Positions 6,342-60,289 of a stretch of 64,000 bases of DNA are shown here, piece after piece. The DNA is taken from positions 1 through 64,000 of the forward strand of contig JACQZQ010000121.1 in assembly GCA_016213785.1 (NCBI GenBank), given 5' to 3'. The stretch is from Acidobacteriota bacterium (GTDB lineage Bacteria; Acidobacteriota; Blastocatellia; Chloracidobacteriales; JADJPF01). Each line of letters begins with the position of its first letter. Position 1 is the first letter of the stretch. Both the position numbers and the translations under genes were made by a program. Under the pieces are notes generated by a model. That model saw only the letters and a list, made by a program, of their open reading frames with translations, was not told where the DNA came from and did not search any database.

Positions 6342-8285
6342 ATGGTAACTACAAATAAAAAGCTCTTATTATCTTTTGCAATTTGCTTATTAATTTCATT
6401 AATCAGTTTATCTTTAGAAACTTTTGCACAAAAATCATCATCTAGTAATAGCAATAAACAAACAACCGAGCGTGGTTTAGGTTTGCCTACAGTAGCCCAA
6501 TGGCCTACTAGTGCTAAGCGCTATGCCTTAGTTATTGGAGTAGAACAATATCAAGATAAACAAATTACACCTCTTACAGCAGCAGCAAATGATGCAAAAC
6601 TCCTAGCCGATGCTTTAGTAAAATATGCTGGATTTCCTGCTGAGCAAGTTGTTTTACTTGCTTCTGATCAACCTACAGAAAGACAGCCTACTAGAGAAAA
6701 TATCTTAAGAAGATTATCAAATTTACGTGCTGCAATTCCTTCAGATGGATTACTTTTAGTTTCATTTGCAGGTCATGGTATAGAAAGAGAAGGACGCGCC
6801 TTTTTACTACCTTCAAATGCCCAAGTTAGCGGAGATATTTCCTTATTAGAAGATACAGCAGTTAGTGTTGATACCATTAAAGAGCGTATTCGCCAAACTG
6901 GGGTTAAGCAGGTAGTAATGGTTTTAGATGCTTGCCGCAATGACCCTACAGCAGGCCGAGCAGACGCGCCAAATAATTTAACTGAAGCTTATACTCGTGG
7001 ATTTAATTTTGATGTCCGTAACAAGGAAGTATCTGCATTTGCTACACTTTATGCAACTAGTGTAGGTTCAAGAGCTTATGAAAACACAGAGAAAAAAAAT
7101 GGTTATTTTACTCTAGCCATAGTTGATGGACTAAAAGGTGGGGCGGCAAACTCAAAAGGTGAAGTAACTTTAGATGCCCTTAAGCAATATGTACAAGATG
7201 AAGTACCTAAACGAGTAAAAATTGACCTTGGTGTAGGTAAAAAACAAGATCCTCAAATTGTTTTGGATGGCTATAAAGCCAATGAGTTAGTAATTTCTAT
7301 TACTGTTAGCGTTAAAACAGCAGAAAACAATTCAATAAACAGCTCTAGTAATTCTAACAGCTCTAGTCCTAGTGGTGCTTTATCTAGCGCTACTACTGTA
7401 GGTGCTGGAGGACTGCCGCTAAGAGCTTATGAATTTAAGACTGTGGACATTAATGCTACTGGCAAAGTCCTTAAAGAAGAAACTAAACAAGCTAAAAGCT
7501 ATTTAGAAAAACTAGGTGATGTTAATTTAGAAATGGTAGAAATTCCTGCTGGAAGTTTTCTTATGGGGTCCGAACAAACAGAAAAAGGCTATGGTTATAC
7601 TTATGATAGTGAAGAACTACCTCAACATAAAGTCTCTGTTAAAGGCTTTTATTTAGGAAAATTTGAAGTAACACAGGCTCAATGGAGATTTATAGCTAAT
7701 TTACCTAAGATAAATATAGATCTTAAGCCTAAAGTTTCTTGGTTTCGAGATGACAGTAACCCTGTTGAGCAAATAACCTGGGAAGAGGCTGTAGAATTTT
7801 GCGCTAGACTTTCAAAACACACTGGTAAAGAGTATCGATTACCAACAGAAGCAGAATGGGAATATGCTGCTCGCGCTGGTACAGATTCAGCCTTTGGTTT
7901 TGGTGATGAGATAACTCTTAAGCAGGTTAACTATAAAGGGTATTTTAATTATCGTTATCAAGGCCCATCACCTGAAGGCTTTTTAAATGCCACTTTTATT
8001 GTAGGGTCTTCAAATGTTGCTAACTCTTTTGGCCTCTATGATATGCACGGAAATGTTTGGGAATACTGTCAAGATGTTTGGCATGAAAATTATGAAGGTG
8101 CGCCAACAGATGGTAGCGCTTGGCTAACAGGAGCCGATGAAAAGAAACGTACGGCTCGCGGAGGTGGCTGGCTTAATGCAGGGTTTGCTTGTCGTTCTGC
8201 ATTCCGAACTCATGTTGATTTAACCACCTGGAAACATAACGCCTATGGTTTTAGAGTTGCTATGACCGTTCCCAAAAATAATTAA
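6342..8285 (+). CDS. Secreted/anchored caspase-like (peptidase C14) protein with C-terminal formylglycine-generating-enzyme/SUMF1 domain
   Basis: Caspase His/Cys: SFAGHGIEREG and VVMVLDACRNDP; FGE: EIPAGSFLMGSEQTE..YRLPTEAEWEYAARAG..GLYDMHGNVWEYCQD..RGGGW.. GFR. Start moved from 6321 GTG to 6342 ATG because GAGAGG lies about 10 nt upstream of the ATG. Confidence 0.93.
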   Translation: MVTTNKKLLLSFAICLLISLISLSLETFAQKSSSSNSNKQTTERGLGLPTVAQWPTSAKRYALVIGVEQYQDKQITPLTAAANDAKLLADALVKYAGFPAEQVVLLASDQPTERQPTRENILRRLSNLRAAIPSDGLLLVSFAGHGIEREGRAFLLPSNAQVSGDISLLEDTAVSVDTIKERIRQTGVKQVVMVLDACRNDPTAGRADAPNNLTEAYTRGFNFDVRNKEVSAFATLYATSVGSRAYENTEKKNGYFTLAIVDGLKGGAANSKGEVTLDALKQYVQDEVPKRVKIDLGVGKKQDPQIVLDGYKANELVISITVSVKTAENNSINSSSNSNSSSPSGALSSATTVGAGGLPLRAYEFKTVDINATGKVLKEETKQAKSYLEKLGDVNLEMVEIPAGSFLMGSEQTEKGYGYTYDSEELPQHKVSVKGFYLGKFEVTQAQWRFIANLPKINIDLKPKVSWFRDDSNPVEQITWEEAVEFCARLSKHTGKEYRLPTEAEWEYAARAGTDSAFGFGDEITLKQVNYKGYFNYRYQGPSPEGFLNATFIVGSSNVANSFGLYDMHGNVWEYCQDVWHENYEGAPTDGSAWLTGADEKKRTARGGGWLNAGFACRSAFRTHVDLTTWKHNAYGFRVAMTVPKNN

Positions 8286-8344
8286 TTTTTCCCTATTTAA
8301 GAAAATTTTTTTGTAAAAAATTTTCGGCAAAAATCTTTTCTTTC

Positions 8345-8371
8345 TGTCACACTTTATTAAACTCAATCGTC
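8345..8371 (+). promoter_or_regulatory. Putative ECF41-type sigma promoter (TGTCACA-N16-CGTC)
   Basis: TGTCACA at 8345-8351, CGTC at 8368-8371, 16-nt spacer, directly upstream of an oxidoreductase-ECF41 gene pair. Confidence 0.75.
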
Positions 8372-8414
8372 TCCTTTAGTGAAAAGAGCTTTTACTAAAG
8401 GAGACTTTTTATTT

Positions 8415-9620
8415 ATGACAAATGAGCCAAAACAAATTGTAATTTTAGGTGGTGGTTATGCTGGGGTTATGGCAGCAGTACGCCTAGCACATCAAAGTCA
8501 AAAACTAAATATTAAAATTGTTCTTGTTGATGCTAGTGATGGAATGGTTGAAAGAATCCGACTACATCAATTAGCCGCAGGACAAAAAATTAATAAAATC
8601 CCTTATCAAGAGCTACTTAAAAACACTCAAGTTCAGTTTTTACAAGGCTTTGTTACAGCAATTAAACCTAATGAAAGAAAAATTATTATTAAAAAAAATC
8701 AAAATTTTATAGGACTTGATTATAGCCGCTTAGTCTATGCCTTAGGTAGTTCTGTTGATTTAGATTCTGTTTTAGGAGTACGAGAAAATACTTATAGTCT
8801 AGGGTCTTATGATGCAACTTTGTTATTAAAAGAACAGCTAGCTAAAAATCCCAAAAGTCATTTGTTAATATGTGGTGGAGGATTAACGGGAATTGAGTCA
8901 GCAACAGAAATGGCGGAAACTTATCCAAATCTTAAAATTACTCTTGTAACTAGTAGTAATTTTGCTAGCGATCTATCACAAAAAGCACAAGAATATTTAC
9001 AAAAAGTTTTTAAGAAACGTAATATTTTAATCAAAGATAACTCTAAAGTAGTTCAAGTAAATGCTCAAAGCGTTTTACTTAAAGATGGAAGTGAAATAGG
9101 TTTTGATTTTTGCCTTTGGGCAGGCGCACTCACACCACCTAAACTTGCACGCCAAGCAGGTCTAGAAGTTAACGAAATTGGGCAAATAATTGTAGATAAA
9201 ACTCTAAGGTCTATATCACATAAAGAAATTTATGGGGTTGGTGATTCTGCTATACTTGAGCCAAGCGCAGAGATCTACTTACGAATGTCTTGTGCTTCAG
9301 CAATGCCTATGGGCGCACATGCAGCAGATAATATTTTAGCTGAGGTAGAAAACACTAAGATAAAGAATTTTCGTTTTGGTTTTAATGGTAGGTGTATCAG
9401 CCTTGGCCGTAGTGATGCTTTAATCCAAATGGCTGAACACGATGACACCCCCAAAAACAGTATTATTACAGGGCGTTTAGGAGTGTTTGTTAAAGAATTT
9501 ATTTGCCGCTATACTATTTGGTCATTAAATTTAGAGCGTTCAGGCTGGTTTGTTTATCGCTGGCCCAGACCTTATAAACAAAAGTTAATTTCTGGAGTAA
9601 ACCAACATAGTACAGTTTAA
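8415..9620 (+). CDS. NAD(P)/FAD-dependent oxidoreductase (NDH-2-like)
   Basis: KQIVILGGGYAGVMAA dinucleotide-binding motif, LLICGGGLTGIESATEMAE second Rossmann motif, GVGDSA. Start moved from 8379 GTG to 8415 ATG: AAAGGAGAC RBS, and the 8379 start would sit on the predicted TSS. Confidence 0.88.
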   Translation: MTNEPKQIVILGGGYAGVMAAVRLAHQSQKLNIKIVLVDASDGMVERIRLHQLAAGQKINKIPYQELLKNTQVQFLQGFVTAIKPNERKIIIKKNQNFIGLDYSRLVYALGSSVDLDSVLGVRENTYSLGSYDATLLLKEQLAKNPKSHLLICGGGLTGIESATEMAETYPNLKITLVTSSNFASDLSQKAQEYLQKVFKKRNILIKDNSKVVQVNAQSVLLKDGSEIGFDFCLWAGALTPPKLARQAGLEVNEIGQIIVDKTLRSISHKEIYGVGDSAILEPSAEIYLRMSCASAMPMGAHAADNILAEVENTKIKNFRFGFNGRCISLGRSDALIQMAEHDDTPKNSIITGRLGVFVKEFICRYTIWSLNLERSGWFVYRWPRPYKQKLISGVNQHSTV

Positions 9621-53335: not shown

Positions 53336-54106
53336 CTACCCTTTTCCACTACTTTCCACTAAATTTTTAATAAAACTGCTATATTCGTCTTTCATAGGCA
53401 AATCCAGCTCTATATGAATAGCTCTACGCTTAGCTATAGTAGCTTCACCAGTAAGTTTATTGGTAGCTTTTTTTTCATAAGCTTTCCAAAAGAGTCCTAT
53501 TCCTCGTTTTTGCCAATTAGGAACATCATTAAAGTTAATATTCCTAGCAAAAAGTAGCTCATTTTTTTCTGCTACAGATATTTTTTCTAATGCCTTAGTT
53601 GCTTGAGTAAGAGTTTTTCCTTCTTTTCTAAGTGTCCAGTAGCAATAACTATTAAGAGCATTACGATGAGCATCTTCGTTACGCCAACGAAAATAATCAC
53701 AAACTAAATTAATATTTGGTAGCTCACAAATCCTACAATCAAAAGCAGCTAAACTCCCAAGTAGAAGTGAAAATTTTGCACTCGCCTCTGCTGCTAAAAG
53801 AGAAATATACTTTCTAGTTTTACGGTCAAAAGTTTTTTCCTCAAAATGAAAAAGTAATGAAATTTCATCGCTCTCTGTATAGCCATAAATTACACTAAAG
53901 CCACAATTCATCAAGTGTTTAGTAGTAGCAACCATATAATCTCTAAAACACTCATCAAAAGGAGCATTAAATTTATGTATTTCACGAGTTAGTCGGGTAA
54001 ATGCCCGACCATCAATTCTAGCAACCATATAGATTTCTGGTAAAACCCTATGGTCATACGTAGTTTCAAATACTCGCATTTTTTTATCAAGATCATCAAA
54101 TTTCAC
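53336..54106 (-). CDS. Thg1-like protein (tRNAHis guanylyltransferase family, 3'-5' polymerase)
   Basis: MVARIDGRAFTRLTREIHKFNAPFDECFRDYMVATTKHLM.CGFSVIYGYTESDEISLLF; metal-binding D and DE motifs present. Confidence 0.94.
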   Translation of the reverse strand: MKFDDLDKKMRVFETTYDHRVLPEIYMVARIDGRAFTRLTREIHKFNAPFDECFRDYMVATTKHLMNCGFSVIYGYTESDEISLLFHFEEKTFDRKTRKYISLLAAEASAKFSLLLGSLAAFDCRICELPNINLVCDYFRWRNEDAHRNALNSYCYWTLRKEGKTLTQATKALEKISVAEKNELLFARNINFNDVPNWQKRGIGLFWKAYEKKATNKLTGEATIAKRRAIHIELDLPMKDEYSSFIKNLVESSGKG

Positions 54107-54134: not shown

Positions 54135-54635
54135 TTACTTTTTATCTTCAGTTTCTTCTTTAGGAAAAAGCTTTGAGCTAATTAGAGAGTCAAGTGAAAG
54201 TTTGCCTGGCCCACAAGTCATAATAATTACAGAGGCATATAAAAATAAGAAAGGGGCTTCGGCAAGAGCTTTATCAGGATCAGTAAAAAGCTCTTTAAGT
54301 CCTTCACTATGAGCGGTTAAAAAAGCTACTACCATACTAAATGCTAAAGGTATACTTATTAAGCGTGAAGCTAAGCCTAAAATAAGTAACCATCCTCCAA
54401 AACACTCAAGTGAACCTACAAAAATGGCATGAAATTTTGGTGCTGGTATACCAATATCCGTAAAAAATGCAGCCGTTCTATCTAGATTAAGTAATTTCCC
54501 TCTTCCTGCTACATAAAAACCATATCCCCAATAAAGTCTTATAATTAATAAAAAAGGATCCCTAAGATAATCTAAGATTTTAACTAATAAGTCATGCCCT
54601 TTTTTTATTACTGATACTGTGTTATTTTGTACCAT
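54135..54635 (-). CDS. DoxX family membrane protein
   Basis: LIIRLYWGYGFYVAGRGKLLNLDRTAAFFTDIGIPAPKFHAIFVGSLECFGGWLLILGLASRL; AGGAGG RBS before ATG. Confidence 0.92.
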   Translation of the reverse strand: MVQNNTVSVIKKGHDLLVKILDYLRDPFLLIIRLYWGYGFYVAGRGKLLNLDRTAAFFTDIGIPAPKFHAIFVGSLECFGGWLLILGLASRLISIPLAFSMVVAFLTAHSEGLKELFTDPDKALAEAPFLFLYASVIIMTCGPGKLSLDSLISSKLFPKEETEDKK

Positions 54636-54848
54636 AGCCCCTCCTAATGAAAAATACTGTAACTATATTGTGTTTTCTTTGGAATAAAACTCATGTGAAA
54701 CTAGTTATATTCCACAACAAGAACTAAGAACTAAACTTTGGTTAAATACTATAACTTAATTGATCAGCTATATACCATGCATTCATAAACTAGTAAAAGG
54801 TATTAGCCTGTTTAATAAGGCAATCAAATATTAGCTAAAATTTATGGC

Positions 54849-54877
54849 TTGACATATGGCTTTCATTGGAGTATACA
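54849..54877 (+). promoter_or_regulatory. Near-consensus sigma70 promoter TTGACA-N17-TATACA
   Basis: -35 TTGACA 54849-54854, -10 TATACA 54872-54877, about 70-nt leader before the Cys-rich ORF. Confidence 0.75.
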
Positions 54878-54954
54878 CATTGTTTTAGTTCCAATTTTAA
54901 ACCCGCGATTTCATACTATCATAGGGAGTAACAAACAATTAAAGGAGAAATTTA

Positions 54955-55608
54955 ATGGATCGTAGAGATTTTACTAAAGCTGTATTAGGTTTTGCTATTG
55001 CTGGCATGATGTCAGGATGCGGTGGAGAAACAACCCCAACTGAAAGCCCAAAACCTGCTGAGAGTCCAAAACCTGCTGAGAGTCCAAAACCTGTTGAAAC
55101 TGAAAAACCTGCTGAAACTACAGACAAACCTGCTGGTCATGAATGCAAAGGCAAAAATGAATGCAAAGGCAAAGGCGGTTGCAAGACCGGCGATGGCGGT
55201 TGCAAAGGAAAGAACTCTTGTAAAGGTAAAGGCGGTTGCAAAGTAGAAGCTGGTGCTAGTTCTACTCCAGACAAAGGTGCTGGTCACGAATGCAAAGGCA
55301 AAAATGAATGCAAAGGCAAAGGCGGTTGCAAGACCGGCGATGGCGGTTGCAAAGGAAAGAACTCTTGTAAAGGTAAAGGCGGTTGCAAAGTAGAAGCTGG
55401 TGCTAGCGCTACTCCAGACAAAGGTGCTGGTCACGAATGCAAAGGCAAAAATGAATGCAAGGGCAAAGGCGGTTGCAAGACCGGCGATGGCGGTTGCAAA
55501 GGAAAGAACTCTTGTAAAGGTAAAGGCGGTTGTAAAGTAGCTGCTGATAAGAGCAAGAGCAGTTGCGCAGGCAAAGATGGCTGTGGCGCTAAAACTGAAA
55601 AGAAATAA
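54955..55608 (+). CDS. Cys-rich lipoprotein with three BufA2-like (bufferin) repeats
   Basis: MDRRDFTKAVLGFAIAGMMSGCGG (twin-Arg plus lipobox), (ESPKPA)n linker, three copies of HECKGKNECKGKGGCKTGDGGCKGKNSCKGKGGCK. Confidence 0.82.
   Translation: MDRRDFTKAVLGFAIAGMMSGCGGETTPTESPKPAESPKPAESPKPVETEKPAETTDKPAGHECKGKNECKGKGGCKTGDGGCKGKNSCKGKGGCKVEAGASSTPDKGAGHECKGKNECKGKGGCKTGDGGCKGKNSCKGKGGCKVEAGASATPDKGAGHECKGKNECKGKGGCKTGDGGCKGKNSCKGKGGCKVAADKSKSSCAGKDGCGAKTEKK
55135..55536 (+). repeat. Three near-identical 147-bp in-frame tandem repeats (third truncated)
   Basis: Repeat starts GGTCA(T/C)GAATGCAAAGGC at 55135, 55282 and 55429, spacing exactly 147 bp. Confidence 0.95.
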
Positions 55609-55638: not shown

Positions 55639-55686
55639 AAAAAGACCTGGTTTCAAGTATTTAAGCTTAAAAACCAGGTCTTTTTT
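55639..55686. terminator. Strong bidirectional terminator after the Cys-rich gene
   Basis: AAAAAGACCTGGTTT ... AAACCAGGTCTTTTTT. Confidence 0.93.
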
Positions 55687-58111: not shown

Positions 58112-60289
58112 ATGTTAGAAAATAATCCTGAAAACTCATCTACTCAAAATCAACGCTCTGCAATTTGGCTAATACTTTGGCCTCTAGCAATATTACTTAG
58201 GCTATCTAATATTTTTGGAGTTTTTGTTGATGGGCAAGTATTTTTTTATGCTACAGATCCTTACTATCACTTAAGGCGAATAGTCTTAGCATTTAATAAT
58301 TTTCCTCATGTAATAGATAAAGATATTTACTTAAACTTTTCAAATGGTGCTCCTACACATTGGCCTTTTGGTTTTGACATAATAATGGCAGCAATTATTT
58401 CAGTTTTGACTTTTGGGCAAGCTGACAACTGGTGGATAGAAGCAATTGGAGCATTATTACCTGTCTTAATTGGCGGGTTACTGCCACCAGTAATTTACTT
58501 AATAGCTCTTGAGCTAAGTGATCAATTTACAGCTTTACTAGCTGGAATTCTTAGCGCACTACTACCTATGTCAATTCATTATGCTCAAATAGGAAATCTT
58601 GATCACCATTTCTTTGCTGCTCTTTGCCAAGCACTATTTTTACTTACATATTTAAGAGCTAGTCAAAAGGAAAAACCTAATATTTGGTCAATACTTTCTG
58701 GAATAGTTTTGTTAGTAGCTGCCACAGCTACAACAGAATTTCCTTTTATTATAGCAATTCATTGTATTTATTTATTTGTAGTTTGGTTTAGAGTTGATAG
58801 AAAAAGACAAAATGAATTAATCTTAATTAACCTAAAAATATTTCTTACTATAACACTACTACTACTACCCTGTATATTTACCAATTATTTTGAGCCTAAT
58901 GGAGTTAGTCCACTTCTTGCTAGTTCTTGGTTTGGATGTTTTGCTTTTTCTACCTTTTTAGCAGCATTAGCTACAGGAAAAAAGTTAACCCCTTATTCTT
59001 TCTCCATTATTTTCATCACTTTAGCAATTATTGCTACCCTTGTTTTTGATTTTTCTTTAATTAGTAAGCTATTAGCTGAATTTCAAATAAGTCAAGGAAA
59101 TAGTGTTATAGCAAAGCTAATTAGGGAAAATGATCCCATTATATTTGCTGGGCTAAAGGCTTTACTCTATTGGCAATCAGGTTTTCTTTTACTAACCCCT
59201 ATAACAATATTTTTATTATTTCGCCACCGTAGTGAGTCTAACCTACTCATTCTAGTTGCTTTAGTAATTATGCAGCCTCTAACACTGGCTCATGAGCGTT
59301 TTGGTGTTTTGCTTATAGTCCCTTTCTCTCTAGCTAGCGCAATATTAGCTAAAGAAGGCATGGTAATAGTTAAAACATATCTACCTAAACAGCGCCTAGG
59401 AGAATTACTAGGCGCAACCATAATTTTATTGGCACTCTTACCTTGTTTAGTTGGAATTAACTTTGCTAGCCCAACTATAGTAATAAAAAACCGCTCTTTT
59501 GCACCTCTTTATAATGCCTTTACTTGGTTAAAAAATAATAGCCCAAAAGTTAACCCAGAAGCGCCTGAGTATGGAGTAATTGCTAATCAATGGGACTTAG
59601 GCCATTGGATAGTTCATTTTGCTGAACGTCCTACAGTGTCTTCTCCGCTTTTACATACTTCAGAACTGGCACAAGCGGTTTTTGATAGCGCTAAAATCTT
59701 TGTCCAACCCCCTAAAACAGCACTAAAAGCCCTTGAAAATCGCAAACTACAATATTTGATAATTACTCAAGATGATTTTAATAATTTGCTTGAATTAGCA
59801 GGAAATAACATTGATTTAATTAAACAAAATGAAGGGCTTTCAAAAGAGCTACTTTATCAGAGTCTTTATGGTCAGTTGCTTCTTTCCTATGGCTTTGCAC
59901 TAAATGACCCTACAAACTATCAACTAGAAAGATTTCGTCTAGTTTATGAAACAAAAGAAACTTCTAAGGTAAACAATTTAGCTGTACCTGTTTGTATGAT
60001 ATTTGAAATAGTAAAAGGAGCACATTTAATAGGCCAAACTAAGCCAGGATCTTTAGTAACTGCTACAACAGAGCTTAAAACACCTCGCGAGCGCTCAATT
60101 TCTTACTCAACCACTACTAAAGCTGATGAAAATGGTAAATTTGACTTAATTCTTCCTTATGCAACTGGAGGAAATAATAATACAAATATCTTTGCTTCTT
60201 CTTATGTAATAAAAACAGAACAGTCTTTTTCTAGTCTAGTAGTCAAAGAATCTCAAGTAAAAAATGGTGAAACTATTGAGATGAAATAG
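58112..60289 (+). CDS. STT3/PglB/AglB-like GT-C oligosaccharyltransferase family protein
   Basis: YATDPYYHLRRI (first acidic motif), IGNLDHHFFAALC (DHH), VIANQWDLGHWIVHFAERPTVSSPLL (WWDYG-like). Confidence 0.82.
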   Translation: MLENNPENSSTQNQRSAIWLILWPLAILLRLSNIFGVFVDGQVFFYATDPYYHLRRIVLAFNNFPHVIDKDIYLNFSNGAPTHWPFGFDIIMAAIISVLTFGQADNWWIEAIGALLPVLIGGLLPPVIYLIALELSDQFTALLAGILSALLPMSIHYAQIGNLDHHFFAALCQALFLLTYLRASQKEKPNIWSILSGIVLLVAATATTEFPFIIAIHCIYLFVVWFRVDRKRQNELILINLKIFLTITLLLLPCIFTNYFEPNGVSPLLASSWFGCFAFSTFLAALATGKKLTPYSFSIIFITLAIIATLVFDFSLISKLLAEFQISQGNSVIAKLIRENDPIIFAGLKALLYWQSGFLLLTPITIFLLFRHRSESNLLILVALVIMQPLTLAHERFGVLLIVPFSLASAILAKEGMVIVKTYLPKQRLGELLGATIILLALLPCLVGINFASPTIVIKNRSFAPLYNAFTWLKNNSPKVNPEAPEYGVIANQWDLGHWIVHFAERPTVSSPLLHTSELAQAVFDSAKIFVQPPKTALKALENRKLQYLIITQDDFNNLLELAGNNIDLIKQNEGLSKELLYQSLYGQLLLSYGFALNDPTNYQLERFRLVYETKETSKVNNLAVPVCMIFEIVKGAHLIGQTKPGSLVTATTELKTPRERSISYSTTTKADENGKFDLILPYATGGNNNTNIFASSYVIKTEQSFSSLVVKESQVKNGETIEMK

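What the first reader, a model, noticed from the sequence alone, without database searches (positions are those of the whole stretch)
54135..55608. Divergent DoxX / triple-repeat BufA2-like bufferin locus without a visible MNIO enzyme
The Cys-rich protein repeats a CxGxNxCxGxGxC core resembling BufA2-type bufferins (copper-binding RiPP-like proteins). DoxX genes are frequent in bufferin operons. Here the core is triplicated in one polypeptide with about 18 core Cys, carries a twin-Arg plus lipobox-like leader, and is divergent from DoxX. No DUF692 (MNIO) or DUF2063 gene is in this window. It may be an unmodified metal buffer, a precursor modified in trans, or a new architecture.
Basis: partly seen in the sequence, partly recalled or inferred. 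Interest (0 to 1): 0.82.

Follow-up and report, generated by a model that had tools for sequence, protein, structure and literature searches.

The report
Orphan triple-module BufA2 bufferin precursor
This is a cysteine-rich, probably membrane-anchored member of the known bufferin family (copper-trapping modified peptides); its modifying enzymes are missing next door but present elsewhere in the same genome, so it is most likely processed at a distance rather than being a new kind of system.

Summary
A 217-aa ORF (54955-55608 +) carries three near-identical 6-Cys modules (C-x5-C-x5-C-x6-C-x5-C-x5-C; 18 core Cys, 21 in all), an RRDF leader and a lipobox, divergent from a DoxX gene. It scores 62.5 bits against NCBIfam BufA2 (cut-off 60). 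'No MNIO' is true only of the window: another contig of the same genome holds a complete bufABC operon (6-Cys precursor, BufB 364 bits vs cut-off 310, the only DUF2063 gene), whose precursor has a closely similar leader. In 65 of 80 related loci elsewhere the same module lies directly before an MNIO gene. Five of these have three modules, one of them with divergent DoxX as well. Among 58 relatives, BufB occurs in exactly the six genomes that have the module protein. Multi-module, lipoprotein and stand-alone Buf2 precursors are already described (PMC12452194). Verdict: an ordinary BufA2 family member in a split arrangement, most likely modified in trans; modification and metal binding are not shown. 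Added here: a leader motif, roughly [AGST]G[LIMV]xxG (74 of 79 bufferin leaders vs 22 of 219 controls), and a frequent twin-Arg (47 of 79 vs about 6%), candidates for a recognition or export signal.

The parts
54135..54635 (-). doxX gene (DoxX membrane protein, HvfX-like), divergent from bufA2
   Evidence: Pfam DoxX 67.3 bits; NCBIfam HvfX 72.5 bits, below its cut-off of 80; ortholog and arrangement kept in same-genus genome G001
54636..54954 (.). divergent intergenic region; its bufA2-proximal part is strongly conserved between G000 and G001
   Evidence: alignment
54849..54877 (+). sigma-70-like promoter TTGACA-17-TATACA of bufA2 (inferred)
   Evidence: read from sequence; both hexamers and the 17-nt spacing conserved in G001. 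Not listed by the scanner, which demands T at the last position of the second hexamer
54942..54947 (+). AAGGAG ribosome-binding site
   Evidence: sequence, conserved in G001
54955..55608 (+). orphan bufA2-type precursor gene, 217 aa, three 6-Cys modules
   Evidence: NF050166 Cu_RiPP_BufA2 62.5 bits vs cut-off 60, three stretches
54955..55020 (+). leader/signal peptide MDRRDFTKAVLGFAIAGMMSG|C: RRDF motif, AGMMSG leader motif, lipobox Cys22
   Evidence: leader similar to that of the C71 operon precursor
55132..55251 (+). 6-Cys module 1
55279..55398 (+). 6-Cys module 2 (1 nt difference from module 1 over 120 nt)
55426..55545 (+). 6-Cys module 3 (4 and 5 nt differences from modules 2 and 1)
55640..55686 (+). 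terminator-like hairpin (AAAAGACCTGGTTT...AAACCAGGTCTTTTTT), inferred
   Evidence: read from sequence; its long loop lies outside the scanner's limits

Best explanation
The gene encodes a triple-module BufA2-type bufferin precursor. Shown by sequence: the family score, the modules, the leader, and a same-genome bufABC operon whose precursor has a closely similar leader. Inferred: BufB (MNIO) and BufC (DUF2063/RRE) from contig C71 recognise the leader in the cytoplasm and oxidise core Cys, presumably to thiooxazoles as in characterised bufferins. The product is then exported, lipidated at Cys22 and held at the cell envelope as a high-capacity buffer for copper or another soft metal. DoxX is an accessory membrane protein, probably in redox or metal-stress protection. 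Multiplying the module raises the number of metal sites per anchored molecule.
For: NF050166 62.5 vs 60. Own-genome BufB 364 bits vs 310, with a DUF2063 partner at 50 vs 27.2. Match to the C71 operon precursor including its leader (E 1.4e-10). In G005 a precursor with two of the same modules lies directly before BufB; in G004 one genome has both an operon-linked and an orphan copy. 65 of 80 homologous loci have MNIO immediately downstream, 61 of these also BufC. BufB above cut-off only in G000, G001, G003, G004 and G005, plus a truncated BufB start at the contig end of G002: exactly the six genomes with the module protein among 58. 8 of 9 genuine orphans in the scan lie in genomes with a BufB above cut-off. 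Leader motif in 74/79 bufferin leaders including this one, vs 22/219 controls. Purifying selection, dN/dS about 0.10. Published: 0 of 864 complete genomes with Buf2 genes lacked MNIO (PMC12452194).
Against: No modification, metal binding, expression or localisation is measured. A single module scores only about 30 bits; the cut-off is passed because three modules add up. The C71 operon has its own substrate with different core spacing (CKGTSSCKGT...), so cross-recognition of the window's cores is inferred. No regulatory motif of 9 or more bases is shared by the two upstream regions. 'Orphan' could in principle mean unmodified.
Confidence: 0.75

Rival explanations
1. Unmodified metal buffer: the orphan works as a plain Cys-thiolate, metallothionein-like periplasmic lipoprotein, and only the C71 precursor is modified.
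For: It is unlinked from MNIO; in Blastocatellia the stand-alone copies have a lipobox while the operon copies examined do not, which suggests divergent roles. PMC12452194 names this option.
Against: Module and leader motif are the same as in MNIO-linked precursors, including triple-module ones; BufB presence matches the protein exactly among relatives.
Confidence: 0.18
2. It is modified in trans, but its main ligand is not copper (Zn, Ag, Au, Hg or other soft metals). This overlaps with the best explanation and differs only in the metal.
For: Gold-induced and mercury-linked bufferin relatives are discussed in PMC12452194; no copper gene was identified among the neighbours checked.
Against: The characterised bufferins act on copper (PMC12452194).
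Confidence: 0.2
3. A new self-contained architecture in which DoxX, or another local protein, replaces the MNIO.
For: DoxX is the only linked bufferin-type gene and the divergent arrangement is kept in G001.
Against: DoxX also sits near BufA2 where MNIO is present (L061, L067, L076, L088), so it is an addition, not a replacement; BufBC exist in the same genome.
Confidence: 0.02
4. A decaying leftover of a former operon.
For: It is unlinked from the enzymes.
Against: dN/dS about 0.10, intact promoter and RBS, relatives kept across genus, family and order.
Confidence: 0.02

Closest known systems
Buf2 / BufA2 bufferins (Buf_6/12Cys; NCBIfam NF050166; PMC12452194)
   Same: 6-Cys module, signal-peptide/lipoprotein-like leader, MNIO and DUF2063 in the genome, DoxX association; stand-alone precursors are described for the family
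   Different: three modules (paper: 6 Cys in 90%, 12 Cys in the rest); MNIO and DUF2063 on another contig
Operon-linked triple-module BufA2 homologs found here (L055, L056, L059, L060, L061)
   Same: three modules with the same spacing; L061 also has divergent DoxX
   Different: MNIO directly downstream
Buf_EGKCG/oxazolins, fontiphorin and other Lys-Cys captophorins (PMC13097082)
   Same: repeat-rich Cys precursors, MNIO + DUF2063-type partner, metal binding
   Different: Lys-Cys (EGKCG) repeats instead of Cys-Lys modules; the closest solved MNIO, 3BWW, reads ERDF where C71 BufB reads EWDD

Membership tests
BufA2 / Buf2 bufferin precursor | match to the family profile above curated cut-off | tested here: met
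   62.5 vs 60 bits, summed over three stretches; about 30 bits for the best single module
BufA2 / Buf2 bufferin precursor | 6-Cys (or multiple of 6) module | tested here: met
   three exact modules
BufA2 / Buf2 bufferin precursor | N-terminal signal peptide/leader | tested here: met
   leader with RRDF, hydrophobic stretch and lipobox, by pattern; no signal-peptide predictor was available
BufA2 / Buf2 bufferin precursor | MNIO and DUF2063 partner in cis (usual, not obligate: stand-alone Buf2 precursors are reported) | tested here: not met
   none in the window; both on contig C71
BufA2 / Buf2 bufferin precursor | MNIO (BufB) and DUF2063 in the genome | tested here: met
   BufB 364 vs 310; DUF2063 50 vs 27.2
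BufA2 / Buf2 bufferin precursor | Cys-derived thiooxazole or equivalent modification | not testable with these tools
   needs MS/UV-vis
BufA2 / Buf2 bufferin precursor | copper binding / copper protection | not testable with these tools
   needs bench work
HvfX family (DoxX of RiPP clusters) | NF050144 curated cut-off | tested here: not met
   72.5 vs 80 bits; it is a DoxX protein by Pfam
Tat substrate | twin-arginine signal recognised by a profile | tested here: inconclusive
   RRDF..K present, TatC in the genome, but no TIGR01409 hit for this protein at E<=10; sub-cut-off hit for relative L024

The most novel reading that the evidence does not exclude
Buf2 leaders carry a conserved motif (about [AGST]G[LIMV]xxG) that serves as the BufB/BufC recognition site for both operon-linked and unlinked precursors. 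In the RRDF-leader clade export goes through Tat, which would hold the precursor in the cytoplasm until all modules are modified. This would answer the open question in PMC12452194 of how premature export is avoided.
Probability: 0.25. Interest if true: 0.55.

Novelty: new member of a known kind. Interest (0 to 1): 0.33.

Why it matters
It is a clear natural case for testing whether one MNIO/partner pair modifies precursors encoded elsewhere, a question left open in the MNIO landscape paper (PMC12452194): two precursors with similar leaders, one BufBC pair, one DUF2063 gene in the genome. It also shows that bufferin modules multiply (1-4 per protein) like cassettes, and it points to a leader motif that can be mutated to find the recognition signal.

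Tried and rejected
AlphaFold2 model of the window protein: mean pLDDT 50.9, pTM 0.19, only the leader helix predicted; not interpreted. PDB sequence search with the precursor: no hit at E<=1. Pfam gives nothing significant for it. A promoter motif shared by the two bufferin loci: no shared 9-mers; each has its own near-consensus promoter. The Asp after the catalytic EWD of BufB as a mark of Cys-Lys MNIOs (PMC13097082): present in all five Blastocatellia BufBs, but only 16 of 65 in the wider set by a simple pattern, so not used as a criterion. The G012 hit is a cytochrome-like CxxCH frame and was dropped. The first paper search with 'bufferin' matched 'buffering' and was useless.

Full report
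Observation. The ORF at 54955-55608 (+) is 217 aa and starts behind an AAGGAG site. It has three copies of a 40-residue module (residues 60-99, 109-148, 158-197) with a period of 147 bp. Over 120 nt the copies differ by 1, 4 and 5 bases. Each module has the spacing C-x5-C-x5-C-x6-C-x5-C-x5-C. With lipobox Cys22 and two tail Cys the protein has 21 Cys. Of 20000 shuffles of the protein, one had the module at all and none had it three times. DoxX (54135-54635, -) is divergent across 319 bp. The same-genus genome G001 keeps bufA2 and the divergent doxX (its bufA2 runs off the contig), with dN 0.056 and dS 0.574 for bufA2. The bufA2-proximal part of the intergenic region is strongly conserved, including a TTGACA-17-TATACA promoter.

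Family. NCBIfam assigns the protein to BufA2 (62.5 bits, cut-off 60). This passes because three stretches add up; the best single module gives about 30 bits, and several relatives, including operon-linked ones, fall below the cut-off. Genetic context is the stronger evidence. A scan of the genome-contig collection with an alignment found 378 relatives and kept 80. In 65 of the 80 the module protein lies directly upstream of an MNIO gene, and 61 of these also have a BufC-like gene. They come from records titled Acidobacteria, Planctomycetota, proteobacterial classes, Candidatus Eremiobacterota and others. Module number varies from 1 to 4; five loci with three modules have MNIO in cis. The top-80 ranking favours multi-module proteins, so these proportions are not frequencies in nature.

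MNIO in the genome. The window lacks MNIO, but the genome has three PF05114 genes. The one on C71 belongs to a complete bufABC operon: a 101-aa 6-Cys precursor (L004 7383-7688), BufB (7770-8621; NF050167 364.4 vs 310) and BufC (8621-9472; DUF2063 50 vs 27.2). This is the only DUF2063 gene found above cut-off. The C71 precursor starts MNRRDFAKLMLSAAIAGMVSG and the window protein MDRRDFTKAVLGFAIAGMMSG; the two proteins match at E 1.4e-10. The C71 precursor itself scores only 18.8 bits against the BufA2 profile, so it is filed by its position before BufB. The second MNIO (C74) follows a TIGR04222 membrane protein with a Cys-rich tail. The third (C130) is a distant member.

Link between orphan and enzyme. 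In the same order, G005 has a precursor with two of these modules directly before BufB, and G004 has both an operon-linked and a stand-alone copy. Of 58 relatives searched, BufB above cut-off occurs in G000, G001, G003, G004 and G005, with a truncated BufB start at the contig end of G002, next to its precursor. These are exactly the six genomes with the module protein (leaving out the cytochrome-like G012 hit). By simple counting the chance of such a match is 1 in C(58,6), about 2.5e-8 (own arithmetic, not corrected for relatedness). Of nine genuine stand-alone copies in the scan, eight lie in genomes with a BufB above cut-off. The published survey found no complete genome with Buf2 but without MNIO (0 of 864; PMC12452194).

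DoxX. DoxX lies near BufA2 in several distant loci. In L061 (Planctomycetota) the order is doxX divergent from a triple-module bufA2, followed by MNIO and BufC. L066 and L088 (Planctomycetota) also have DoxX on the opposite strand at the 5' side of bufA2. The window arrangement is therefore a bufferin arrangement with the enzymes elsewhere, not a new design. PMC12452194 lists DoxX among the core genes of bufferin clusters.

Leader. Among 79 distinct bufferin leaders, 74 contain the pattern [AGSTL]G[LIMVF].[AGSTLFV][GAST], against 22 of 219 hydrophobic N-termini of neighbouring ORFs; the RRxF motif is in 47 of 79 against about 6%. The pattern was read off the same set, so the numbers describe rather than test it. 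The authors of PMC12452194 report preliminary evidence that the signal peptide is part of the BufB-BufC recognition sequence, which fits. Twin-Arg may mean Tat export; the genome has TatC, but no Tat profile matched this protein. The term twin-arginine does not occur in that paper, and the one held paper with both terms is unrelated. The stand-alone copies in G000-G004 have a lipobox; the operon copies in G000, G001, G003 and G005 do not.

Mechanism. Most likely the C71 BufB/BufC pair modifies the window precursor through the similar leader. The product is exported, lipidated and kept at the envelope as a metal buffer with up to 18 core Cys. Modification chemistry, metal and localisation are inferred from characterised relatives. 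The main rival is an unmodified lipoprotein buffer.

Verdict. A sound observation and a largely right family call. It is explained by a known, widespread family, and multi-module, lipoprotein and stand-alone Buf2 precursors were already reported (6 Cys in 90%, 12 Cys in the rest; about 16% lipoproteins). What is added is the three-module form, the in-genome enzyme pair, and a leader motif for testing recognition.

Noticed in passing
L053 about 7940-8400 (G003:C4, same family): The operon-linked precursor before BufB has a long run of near-perfect CKGEKAS heptad repeats (about 15) after an MNRRDF leader: a strongly expanded, low-complexity bufferin substrate.
   Followed up: partly
L002 417-2900 (G000:C74): A second MNIO cluster in the same genome: TIGR04222 membrane protein (82.2 bits vs 43) with a Cys/Gly-rich tail, MNIO, and a 194-aa protein without Pfam match that may be a PME-type 2 partner.
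   Followed up: partly
window 58112-60289 (+): STT3/AglB-type oligosaccharyltransferase with an archaeal AglB_L1 domain (65.2 bits) in a genome whose near relatives are Blastocatellia (bacteria).
   Followed up: no
window 53336-54106 (-): Bacterial Thg1 (tRNAHis guanylyltransferase) with both Thg1 domains, next to doxX here and in G001.
   Followed up: no
L057 6815-7423: A Planctomycetota protein with four 6-Cys modules (24 Cys), no MNIO in the 1.2 kb to the contig end; its genome shows only MNIO matches below the BufB cut-off.
   Followed up: no
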